In this document: positions 8,703 to 10,936 of the stretch, one piece after another
How the letters are laid out: each line of letters begins with the position of its first letter
How positions within the stretch are numbered: the first letter of the stretch is position 1
Origin: Alteromonas sp. CI.11.F.A3
Lineage (GTDB): Bacteria; Pseudomonadota; Gammaproteobacteria; Enterobacterales; Alteromonadaceae
NCBI RefSeq assembly: GCF_032925565.1
Contig: NZ_CP136708.1
Location: 4,526,001-4,590,000 of the forward strand
Length of the DNA: 64,000 nucleotides
Direction of reading: 5' to 3'
Position numbers and translations under genes: made by a program
Notes under the pieces: model-generated
Databases searched by the model: none
What the model was told of the DNA's origin: nothing
Seen by the model: only the letters and a program-made list of their open reading frames with translations

Positions 8703-9704
8703 ATGGCTACGATTAAAGACATTGCTCAGGCTGCAGGTGTATCTCTTGCAACCGTTTCACGCGTTATAAATAACGGCCCTAAAGTTGGCAAAGATACCCG
8801 TCAGCGGGTAAAACTCATCATGGAAGAAATGGGTTATAGACCCAATGCTAACGCCAGAGCTTTGGTGACTAAGCGCAGTGCCTCGCTAGGCGTAGTGTTA
8901 GCAGAACTTCACGACCCTTTCTTCGCAATGCTTGCCCATGGCGTTGAAACCGTTACTCGTAAGAATAACGTTCAAATTCTATTAAGTGCGGGCTCGATAG
9001 AAAAAGAAACCGAATTGCGTGCTATCGAAATTCTACTGGAACACCGCGTAGAAGCCATGGTGGTTCACAGTAAAGCATTGGATGACAAAACCCTTATCGA
9101 CTTTGCTAAGCAAGTACCGGGCTTTGTATTAATTAACCGCTACATTCCAGAAATTGCTAATCGTTGCGTTTGGTTAGATAACGTCACCGGCGGGCGCTTG
9201 ATGGCTGAACATGCTATCAATCAAGGTCATAAAAAGTTGGCGGTAATCAGCAGCCAATACCGTATTGATGATCCTAATCACCGTTTAGAAGGCATAGTTA
9301 ACGCTACCGAAGCAGCCAAGCTTACCTTACCTGAAAGCATGATTGAGTATGCGACGCCAGATCAAGAAGGCGGCGAATTGGCCATGCAGAACTTACTCGC
9401 TACTGGCGCTGAATTTACTGCGGTGCTTGCCTATAACGATGCTATGGCGTCTGGCGCAATGACCATGTTACAAGACCATGGTATCGCTGTACCCGAGCAA
9501 GTATCAGTGATGGGCTATGATGATGTGCTGTTAGCCAAATATTGTCGCCCTAAATTGACCACTTTGCGTTACCCAATAGAAATGATGGCAGCAAAAGCGG
9601 CAGAACTTGCGCTGAAATACGCTGCTGGGGCAAAACCTGAAGAAGGCCTTACCTTTAAATATACGCCTACTATCGTTAAACGTGACTCGGTGGTAAGGGT
9701 CTAG
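8703..9704 (+). CDS. galR: LacI-family repressor, GalR-like
   Basis: 333 residues. N-terminal LacI helix-turn-helix and hinge (MATIKDIAQAAGVSLATVSR, then GYRPNANARALV), followed by a periplasmic-binding-protein-like sensor domain. Many runs match E. coli GalR closely (MATIKD, ATVSRVINN, PNANARAL, VLINR, LTTLRYPIEMMA). It is divergent from galM. Predicted to repress the gal genes and to be relieved by galactose; the palindrome at 7292-7307 is the best candidate operator. No clear Shine-Dalgarno precedes the ATG. The inducer and the exact regulon are inferred. Confidence 0.9.
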   Translation: MATIKDIAQAAGVSLATVSRVINNGPKVGKDTRQRVKLIMEEMGYRPNANARALVTKRSASLGVVLAELHDPFFAMLAHGVETVTRKNNVQILLSAGSIEKETELRAIEILLEHRVEAMVVHSKALDDKTLIDFAKQVPGFVLINRYIPEIANRCVWLDNVTGGRLMAEHAINQGHKKLAVISSQYRIDDPNHRLEGIVNATEAAKLTLPESMIEYATPDQEGGELAMQNLLATGAEFTAVLAYNDAMASGAMTMLQDHGIAVPEQVSVMGYDDVLLAKYCRPKLTTLRYPIEMMAAKAAELALKYAAGAKPEEGLTFKYTPTIVKRDSVVRV

Positions 9705-9738: not shown

Positions 9739-9777
9739 ACTTACCTTCATCAATAGGTAAAAATTATGAAGGTAAGT
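9739..9777. other. Perfect 12-bp inverted repeat after galR
   Basis: ACTTACCTTCAT (9739-9750) and ATGAAGGTAAGT (9766-9777) with a 15-base loop, 34 bp after the galR stop. There is no T-run on either side, so it is not a classical terminator. It may still form a hairpin at the galR 3' end or be a protein-binding site. Confidence 0.6.
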
Positions 9778-9808: not shown

Positions 9809-10062
9809 GATCTTGACAACTTACTGAGCTTGATCTGTTAACGAAAACTTTTATCCCCAATCCCCTGCTACTAGCGATCCTGATACCACTAAAGATCTAC
9901 TTATCGACCGATCTAAAATAAACTTGCTACAGCCCTTGATTTAATTGAGCTAACGTGATCTGACCAGTTGGTCTAGGCAGATCACGATCTTATTTTAAAT
10001 TTATAAGCTTAGAGAGTTACCAACAACTTGATCCACACTTTATCCACAGGCTTAAAAGTGTG
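9809..10062. other. Origin-like element: GATC cluster with DnaA boxes
   Basis: Nine GATC sites start at 9809, 9832, 9876, 9894, 9910, 9957, 9980, 9986 and 10030; about one would be expected by chance in 225 bp. A perfect DnaA box TTATCCACA lies at 10040-10048 and a one-mismatch box TTATCCCCA at 9851-9859. Inverted repeats: CGTGATCTG/CAGATCACG (9954-9962/9978-9986) enclosing GACCA-GT-TGGTC, and CACACTTT/AAAGTGTG (10034-10041/10055-10062) whose loop carries most of the DnaA box. An AT-rich stretch (9986-10012) follows GATCT. These are the ingredients of an enterobacterial-type oriC or a DnaA/SeqA-binding locus. Function is inferred; neither dnaA nor mnmG is in the window. Confidence 0.4.
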
Positions 10063-10075
10063 ATAAACCTTGATT

Positions 10076-10936
10076 CTACGGGCTTATATGGCTGATAAAC
10101 CGCTGATACTCTTCTATCGCGAAGTCGTGCTTTAGCGTGGCATTATGGGTCGCACCAGGCACTACACTAATGTACTTTGCGTGACTGGCCGACGTTGCTA
10201 ACAATTGCTTACTAATTTCGAATGGGGTAATAACATCTTTCTCACCAACTAAGAGCCAAAGCGGGCCCTCGTAGTGCCTTAAAATGGGGGCGATTTGCAT
10301 TAGGTGTACTTCAGGGTGAAGTTTCATGCTGGTCAGTGAATTCGAAAAACCAGGCACCATGTTGGCAATGAGATCGGATATGTCGTTAAACGCCCCATCG
10401 AGCACTAGCCCGCCAATAGGTTTATTCGCCGCCACATAGCTTGCGAAATAACTGCCCACGCCTCTGCCATGCACAATAGTGGGTAACGACTTATCGAATA
10501 TACCTTCGGCGTAATCAAAAACAGTCAATGCATCGGCTTTAATCGCATTAATGCTGAGCTTTTCAGATTTATCACTGGCACCAACTCCTTGGTAATCCAT
10601 CCAAAGAATATTCGCCGGAATCTTACCTAAGCGATGCAGCACGCTATTGTTTTCGCTCACCGGCATACGGTTATCGGCGTAAAAAACAATATTCACAACA
10701 GGCTCGGCATAAGACACAGCAACGCCTCTTAACGTTAGACCTTGCTCATTATCAATTTCTACGCGAGTAATCCCTGCCGACGTTTTATCTTGCTCAATGG
10801 CGGCATGTAACTTCGTGGTTGTCAGGGGCTTTGTTTGGTTGTCTTGATGAAAAAAAGCGCTTGGCGTCACATTAATTGCGCAGGCGGCTAAGCCTAATGA
10901 CATAACCGCCACAGTAAATATTTTCGAAAATGTCAT
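10076..10936 (-). CDS. Alpha/beta-hydrolase-fold lipoprotein with a mutated nucleophile motif
   Basis: 286 residues. Lipoprotein signal peptide with lipobox LAAC (Cys19), so probably membrane-anchored facing the periplasm. The body has the alpha/beta-hydrolase pattern: LWMDYQGVGASD near 111, HGRGVGSY at 156-163, an acid in GEKDVITP (D234) and a His in GATHNATL (H264). The nucleophile elbow normally reads G-x-S-x-G; here the central residue is Gly159 (codon GGC), so Ser-dependent catalysis looks lost even though the Asp and His remain. AAGGA precedes the ATG at good spacing. It lies 29 bp downstream of the HAD gene. Substrate unknown; it could be a binding protein or a pseudoenzyme. Confidence 0.75.
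   Translation of the reverse strand: MTFSKIFTVAVMSLGLAACAINVTPSAFFHQDNQTKPLTTTKLHAAIEQDKTSAGITRVEIDNEQGLTLRGVAVSYAEPVVNIVFYADNRMPVSENNSVLHRLGKIPANILWMDYQGVGASDKSEKLSINAIKADALTVFDYAEGIFDKSLPTIVHGRGVGSYFASYVAANKPIGGLVLDGAFNDISDLIANMVPGFSNSLTSMKLHPEVHLMQIAPILRHYEGPLWLLVGEKDVITPFEISKQLLATSASHAKYISVVPGATHNATLKHDFAIEEYQRFISHISP

What the first reader, a model, noticed from the sequence alone, without database searches (positions are those of the whole stretch)
9809..10062. Origin-like GATC/DnaA-box cluster in a convergent intergenic region
Seen: nine GATC in 225 bp, six of them GATCT as in E. coli oriC 13-mers; perfect DnaA box TTATCCACA at 10040 and near-box TTATCCCCA at 9851; nested inverted repeats; an AT-rich stretch; no need for promoters since both flanking genes converge here. 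The spacing of GATCs repeats (23, 44, 18, 16, 47, 23, 6, 44 bp), which could suit paired SeqA binding. Known: oriC and SeqA/DnaA loci have this composition. Inferred: a secondary origin, a DnaA-titration or reactivation site, or even the chromosomal oriC; the downstream dap-xer-uvrD-recQ block is origin-proximal in E. coli. The usual oriC markers dnaA and mnmG are absent.
Basis: partly seen in the sequence, partly recalled or inferred. Interest (0 to 1): 0.75.

Follow-up and report, generated by a model that had tools for sequence, protein, structure and literature searches.

The report
Conserved DnaA/GATC site outside oriC
A short non-coding DNA element in Alteromonas carries the same signals as the chromosome's replication origin and is kept nearly letter for letter at those signals across many species, but it is not the origin; it is probably a control site for the replication starter protein DnaA.

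Summary
The window is 4526001-4590000 of a closed 4,662,912-bp Alteromonas chromosome. The canonical oriC (beside mnmG, dnaA 8 kb away, GC-skew minimum of the 400 kb examined) lies 277 kb away. The block is a real element: 9 GATC in 225 bp equals oriC, and no other non-oriC place in those 400 kb has more than 6. It occurs in 28 of 59 genus genomes, exactly the 28 with a galR-type LacI at least 87% identical. In 26 aligned copies the length is 200 or 201 bp; five GATCs and two DnaA boxes (TTATCCCCA, TTATCCACA) are invariant while spacers fall to 40% identity. All conserved DnaA boxes point one way, three of them head-to-tail; no opposing box is conserved. No RNA fold is supported. Best reading: a DnaA-control locus laid out like E. 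coli datA but bearing an oriC-type GATC cluster, so Dam/SeqA could gate it after the fork passes. Recognition by DnaA and Dam/SeqA is well supported by sequence; the datA-like activity is inference. New variant of a known kind.

The parts
9850..10049 (+). Conserved core element, 200 bp (201 in some relatives)
   Evidence: 26 aligned copies of 200 or 201 bp; single R1 match in this genome (137 bits)
9851..9859 (+). Left DnaA-type box TTATCCCCA (invariant, within invariant TTATCCCCAA)
   Evidence: 26 of 26; the same 9-mer also occurs in oriC of G000, G007 and G020
9809..9812 (.). GATC, present only in the copies nearest this one
9832..9835 (.). GATC upstream of the left box; at or near this place in many but not all copies
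9876..9879 (.). GATC, invariant
   Evidence: 26 of 26; same offset in the two divergent copies
9894..9897 (.). GATC, invariant
   Evidence: 26 of 26; same offset in the two divergent copies
9910..9913 (.). GATC, invariant in the 26 (6 bp nearer in the two divergent copies)
9957..9960 (.). GATC, invariant, within invariant CGTGATC
   Evidence: within 1 bp in the two divergent copies
9980..9983 (.). GATC, invariant
   Evidence: 2-3 bp off in the two divergent copies
9986..9989 (.). GATC, in 22 of 26
9929..9941 (-). Candidate IHF site AATCAAGGGCTGT (2 mismatches to WATCARNNNNTTR); weak
   Evidence: TTGATW in 24 of 26, absent from both divergent copies
10017..10025 (+). Low-affinity-type DnaA box TTACCAACA (2 mismatches)
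   Evidence: a box with 2 mismatches in 26 of 26 at -23 from the right box
10029..10037 (+). Near-consensus DnaA box TGATCCACA (1 mismatch), overlapping the GATC at 10030
   Evidence: box with at most 1 mismatch in 25 of 26 at -11; the overlapping GATC in 8 of 26
10040..10048 (+). Right DnaA box TTATCCACA (perfect, invariant)
   Evidence: 26 of 26; also in both divergent copies
8703..9704 (+). galR-type LacI-family regulator; constant neighbour
10076..10936 (-). S33-type hydrolase; neighbour in 26 of the 28 carriers

Best explanation
A non-coding, non-origin control site for DnaA. Shown from sequence: a fixed 200-bp layout with an invariant DnaA-type box at the left, a three-box head-to-tail DnaA array ending in an invariant perfect box at the right, and five invariant plus further GATCs between and beside them, kept across species whose spacers have diverged to as little as 40% identity. 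Inferred: DnaA nucleates on the perfect right box, spreads over the two weaker boxes, and contacts the left box by DNA looping, so that DnaA is titrated or its ATP hydrolysed there, as at E. coli datA. Also inferred: because the site is copied early (194-273 kb from dnaA or oriC in 9 of 10 genomes placed), its GATCs become hemimethylated soon after initiation, SeqA binds, and DnaA access is blocked or delayed, which would time the site's activity. Odds within this: recognised by DnaA and Dam/SeqA at all, about 0.8; negative, datA-like action, about 0.4.
For: Conservation: 28 of 59 genus genomes; 5 GATC and both outer boxes invariant in 26 of 26, only 29 of 162 spacer columns invariant, spacer identity 0.61 mean and 0.40 minimum. 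Flanks of the invariant GATCs vary, so the 4-mer itself is what is kept. The two most divergent copies keep the GATC offsets within a few bp and the array. One-way boxes: + strand at 0, -11 and -23 from the right box and at the left box; no - strand box with at most 1 mismatch in 13 or more, or at most 2 in 20 or more, of 26 within 120 bp. E. coli datA has the same order, box, IHF site, box, all one way, at 72 and 90 bp (here 85 and 104); one-way boxes are described as the datA rule (PMC5742627, passages). Machinery: SeqA in 58 of 59, Dam in 59 of 59 genus genomes. Place: 193-272 kb from dnaA in 9 of 10 genomes. DNA rather than RNA: 0 of 10 predicted pairs covary, no Rfam match, no terminator and no more promoters than shuffles.
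Against: No binding or activity data. The IHF site that datA needs is doubtful: two mismatches, and TTGATW is absent from both divergent copies. E. coli datA has 1 GATC in 241 bp, so the GATC cluster has no counterpart there. The element is confined to one group of Alteromonas; the model found nothing convincing in 31 other genus genomes or outside the genus, so it is not a universal DnaA control. The position near oriC may be mere synteny, and one genome (G025) has it 1.05 Mb away.
Confidence: 0.5

Rival explanations
1. DARS-like site that reactivates ADP-DnaA.
For: Intergenic DnaA-box cluster away from oriC; the array ending in TTATCCACA. DARS2-like sequences are reported in Vibrio and Shewanella (PMC8682772, passages).
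Against: DARS cores need box I facing boxes II and III (PMC5742627 and PMC8682772, passages); no opposing box is conserved here. The R1 model finds no match in the fetched E. coli DARS1 and DARS2 stretches.
Confidence: 0.12
2. SeqA platform: the GATC cluster is the main function (early-replicating SeqA assembly, sister cohesion or nucleoid folding) and the DnaA boxes only assist.
For: Five invariant GATCs with fixed spacing; SeqA and Dam present; carriers of the main group have longer SeqA linkers.
Against: Both outer DnaA boxes are as invariant as the GATCs, and the array is kept too.
Confidence: 0.2
3. Secondary or former replication origin.
For: Composition: 9 GATC in 225 bp as in oriC, DnaA boxes, an AT-rich stretch in the nearest copies; the TTATCCCCA 9-mer occurs in oriC too.
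Against: A full oriC exists 277 kb away at the skew minimum of the 400 kb examined. The AT-rich stretch is not conserved; highest AT in 30 bp is 0.67-0.83 in the 26 copies against 0.90 in own oriC, though E. coli oriC scores 0.83. oriC similarity is within shuffle controls: 21, 141 and 188 of 300 shuffles score at least as high for three oriCs. A weak own-oriC match (12.3 bits, E 6.7e-5 in 901 bp) I attribute to shared GATCs.
Confidence: 0.04
4. Regulatory or transcript-end element of the neighbouring genes (operator, terminator or small RNA).
For: Always beside the same LacI gene where contigs allow (26 of 28).
Against: Hydrolase replaced by another gene in two carriers while the element stays; no covariation, no Rfam match, no terminator, promoters not above shuffles; GATCs with free flanks do not look like a LacI operator.
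Confidence: 0.09
5. Chance or local composition.
For: Single DnaA boxes are common.
Against: Expected 5e-5 such GATC clusters per genome and invariance across 26 copies.
Confidence: 0.01

Closest known systems
E. coli datA (DnaA-ATP hydrolysis and titration locus)
   Same: Non-coding, oriC-proximal DnaA-box cluster; boxes all one way; candidate IHF site between two outer boxes in the same orientation; similar span (162 against 189 bp)
   Different: datA has 1 GATC in 241 bp; its IHF site is a perfect consensus match while the one here is weak; different neighbours; no R1 match in the datA stretch
gammaproteobacterial oriC
   Same: GATC density and DnaA boxes; TTATCCCCA box also found in three Alteromonas oriCs
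   Different: No conserved unwinding region, one-way boxes only, no homology beyond shuffle controls
E. coli DARS1/DARS2
   Same: Intergenic DnaA-box clusters away from oriC
   Different: Opposing box I is lacking here; 0 GATC in 101 bp and 2 in 461 bp in the stretches counted
Sequestered GATC/DnaA promoters (dnaA, polA regions)
   Same: GATC cluster with DnaA boxes
   Different: Those lie before genes; this one lies between convergent genes in 26 of 28 carriers

Membership tests
datA | Essential DnaA boxes all in one direction | tested here: met
   conserved boxes at left 0, right 0, -11, -23, all +; no conserved - box
datA | IHF site between the outer boxes | tested here: inconclusive
   2-mismatch site at 9929-9941; TTGATW in 24 of 26, absent in both divergent copies
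datA | oriC-proximal place | tested here: met
   193-272 kb from dnaA in 9 of 10 genomes, 1.05 Mb in G025
datA | Stimulates DnaA-ATP hydrolysis or titrates DnaA | not testable with these tools
   Needs biochemistry
datA | Sequence homology to E. coli datA | tested here: not met
   No R1 match in L200; so not filed as a datA homologue, only as working like one
DARS | Core of three boxes with box I opposed to II and III | tested here: not met
oriC | At the GC-skew minimum, beside dnaA or mnmG | tested here: not met
   those features are 277 kb away
oriC | Conserved AT-rich unwinding element | tested here: not met
   columns 140-168 diverge; AT values are less decisive
SeqA/Dam-sequestered locus | Dense GATC with conserved spacing in a Dam+ SeqA+ host | tested here: met
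SeqA/Dam-sequestered locus | Prolonged hemimethylation and SeqA binding in cells | not testable with these tools
   Needs ChIP or long-read methylation data
Structured small RNA | Covarying helices or known family | tested here: not met

The most novel reading that the evidence does not exclude
A lineage-specific DnaA-inactivating or titrating locus that is itself placed under origin-type SeqA sequestration, so that methylation state sets when in the cycle DnaA is inactivated: a direct wiring of sequestration to DnaA control that E. coli datA lacks, possibly co-evolved with the longer SeqA linkers of the same species.
Probability: 0.3. Interest if true: 0.8.

Novelty: new variant of a known kind. 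Interest (0 to 1): 0.6.

Why it matters
In E. coli the cue that times datA and its IHF binding is described as unknown (PMC10380432, passages). An element that joins a one-way DnaA array to an oriC-grade GATC cluster, frozen in spacing across species, would make 'methylation times DnaA control' directly testable in harmless marine bacteria. It also gives a natural comparison: 28 species or strains with it and 31 without it in one genus, all but one incomplete genome with SeqA, all with Dam.

Tried and rejected
Chromosomal oriC: rejected. Duplicate of oriC: own-oriC match at 12.3 bits with filters off looked suggestive, but GATC-preserving shuffles score as high (21, 141 and 188 of 300 for G000, G007, G020, nhmmer), and default search gives none. 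Relatives outside the genus: 13 of the 22 genomes with E <= 0.01 lie outside it, at 17-22 bits against 108-157 bits for the 9 genus hits; their sequences lack the layout, though several share a DnaA-box pair like the right-hand array (L107, L110, L112, L116, L118), which I could not place further. Relatives in non-carriers: best E 0.048 (G013) and 0.147 (G005) share about 30 bp with each other, but the G005 stretch lies inside a long open frame and the G013 one reads as a decayed copy of the same frame by eye; I take both as coding sequence, a judgement without a family search. Mobile-element origin: no phage or plasmid match. RNA element. ATP-DnaA 6-mer AGATCT (recalled motif): flanks of the invariant GATCs vary.

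Limits: GC skew and cluster ranking rest on 400 kb of 4.66 Mb, not the whole genome. One search used stricter filters that lose weak matches. Regions downstream of the LacI gene were read in 17 of 31 non-carriers and downstream of the hydrolase in 24 of 31. The own DARS and datA counterparts of Alteromonas were not located.

Full report
WHERE IT IS. The window is bases 4526001-4590000 of one closed contig of 4,662,912 bp. The genus is Alteromonas: a pattern taken from the element finds 14 stretches in the named genome collection, all titled Alteromonas, several on contigs of the same length as unnamed carriers, e.g. 269,990 bp = A. genovensis and 576,732 bp = Alteromonas sp. MMG017, listed as same species. 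dnaA lies at 141.5 kb and mnmG at 150.3 kb. Between them and directly before mnmG lies a classical oriC: 20 GATC in 731 bp and boxes TTATCCCCA, TTATACACA, TTATTCACA, TTATCCACA, TTATACACA. Cumulative GC skew over the 400 kb examined is lowest in the 145-150 kb bin. The reported block is 277 kb from oriC and shows no skew switch. It is not the chromosomal origin.

IS IT REAL. Nine GATC in 225 bp equals the densest part of oriC, and in the 400 kb examined the next non-oriC places reach 6. At the background rate such a cluster is expected about 5e-5 times per genome. Single DnaA boxes are not above chance.

CONSERVATION. The hydrolase next door was found in 57 of 59 genus genomes. In the 26 genomes where it is at least 70% identical, the block is present in 26. 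Two more genomes, G040 and G053, have no hydrolase match but carry a divergent copy (E 1e-10 and 1e-11) beside the same LacI gene, with a different gene on the other side. These 28 are exactly the genomes whose LacI is 87% or more identical to the window's; the next is 85%. The LacI gene is adjacent on the same contig in 26 of the 28; in G023 and G049 contig ends separate the two. In the other 31 genomes the model gives no convincing match (best E 0.048), and the places downstream of LacI (17 genomes) and of the hydrolase (24 genomes) show no such cluster. In 295 family genomes 22 match at E <= 0.01: 9 in the genus at 108-157 bits and 13 outside it at 17-22 bits, which lack the layout. There is no match in phage or plasmid records.

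ANATOMY. In the 26 aligned copies the core is 200 or 201 bp. Invariant runs of four or more bases are TTATCCCCAA, GATC, GATC, GATC, TTGA, CGTGATC, GATC, AACA, CCAC and TTATCCACA. So five of ten runs hold GATC and two are DnaA-type boxes. Spacers average 61% pairwise identity and fall to 40%; 29 of 162 spacer columns are invariant. The bases beside the invariant GATCs vary, which points to the 4-mer itself, the Dam/SeqA target, as what is selected. All copies, divergent ones included, hold 6 to 9 GATC from 60 bp before the left box to 20 bp past the right one. In the divergent copies the GATC offsets are 25, 43, 53, 105/106, 126/127 and 176/177, against 25, 43, 59, 106, 129, 135 and 179 in the window. 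The right end is a head-to-tail row: a 2-mismatch box in 26 of 26, a box with at most one mismatch in 25 of 26, and the perfect box in 26 of 26, starting 23, 11 and 0 bp from the last. No box on the other strand is conserved. A candidate IHF half-site TTGATW stands in 24 of 26 but not in the two divergent copies, so IHF is undecided. No RNA fold is supported: 10 predicted pairs, none covarying; no Rfam match; one promoter-like site against 1.7 in shuffles and no terminator-like site.

PROTEINS. SeqA is found in 58 of 59 genus genomes (the miss is 87% complete) and Dam in 59 of 59.

PLACE. In ten genomes with dnaA and element on one contig (own plus nine) the distance is 193-272 kb in nine and 1.05 Mb in G025. 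This may be no more than shared gene order.

HOW IT LIKELY WORKS. From papers read in passages: datA boxes that matter all point one way with an IHF site between (PMC5742627); DARS cores need an opposing box (PMC5742627, PMC8682772); SeqA holds hemimethylated GATCs and blocks DnaA at oriC (PMC8488378, PMC10380432); what times IHF at datA is unknown (PMC10380432). E. coli control regions keep binding sites and spacing while spacers drift (PMC4585315, section 16), which is the pattern seen here. The element has the one-way layout of datA (box, 85 bp, IHF-like, 104 bp, box; datA 72 and 90 bp; the naming of datA boxes 2 and 3 in the sequence is my matching) together with an oriC-grade GATC cluster that E. 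coli datA (1 GATC in 241 bp), DARS1 (0 in 101) and DARS2 (2 in 461) lack. I therefore propose a DnaA-control locus, most likely negative, whose access is gated by SeqA after the fork passes. Shown: conservation, layout, host proteins. Inferred: binding, direction of effect, gating.

WHAT SPEAKS AGAINST. No binding data; the IHF site is weak; no homology to E. coli datA is detected; limited to part of one genus. A SeqA platform with accessory DnaA boxes is the strongest rival. The non-carrier G020 has a GATC cluster of 8 without DnaA boxes at 65.4 kb in the 400 kb examined, so GATC clusters alone are not unique.

LITERATURE. Searches for Alteromonas with SeqA (one listing), with DnaA box (four listings), with SeqA, GATC and replication origin (one listing), and for datA with GATC and SeqA (twelve listings) showed no title or abstract start describing such an element; apart from the papers cited here, I did not open the listed papers. 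Most subscription papers are not in that library.

Noticed in passing
G000 124918-125112 (L044); G007 about 17.55-17.85 kb; G020 about 17.9-18.4 kb: A second non-oriC GATC cluster with two TTATCCACA boxes; in G000 it lies directly before a gene that reads as polA (recognised by eye, no family search). Similar clusters at like distances in G007 and G020; their genes were not checked.
   Followed up: partly
SeqA genes: Open frames holding SeqA are 243-335 codons in the 26 main carriers and at most 237 in 30 non-carriers (209 and 210 in G040 and G053). In 15 extracted proteins the difference is a longer Ala/Lys/Pro-rich linker. The groups may simply be clades; a link to the 44-47 bp GATC gaps is a guess.
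   Followed up: partly
oriC of G000 (149875), G007 (4301715), G020 (4116206): TTATCCCCA, a one-mismatch DnaA box, is present in all three oriCs examined as well as in the element; it may be a true DnaA box in this genus.
   Followed up: partly
G025, element at 3.93 Mb: Element 1.05 Mb from dnaA and on the other side, unlike nine other genomes; suggests an inversion.
   Followed up: no
L107, L110, L112, L116, L118: Other family members carry DnaA-box pairs resembling the right-hand array (TTAMCMACAAGGTTATNCACA type) at unrelated places, one of them beside an oriC-like region.
   Followed up: partly
window 9739-9777: Perfect 12-bp inverted repeat after the LacI gene, terminator-like in place; several relatives have a different GC-rich hairpin there.
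   Followed up: no
G020 65408-65466: Eight GATC in 225 bp without DnaA boxes in a non-carrier.
   Followed up: no
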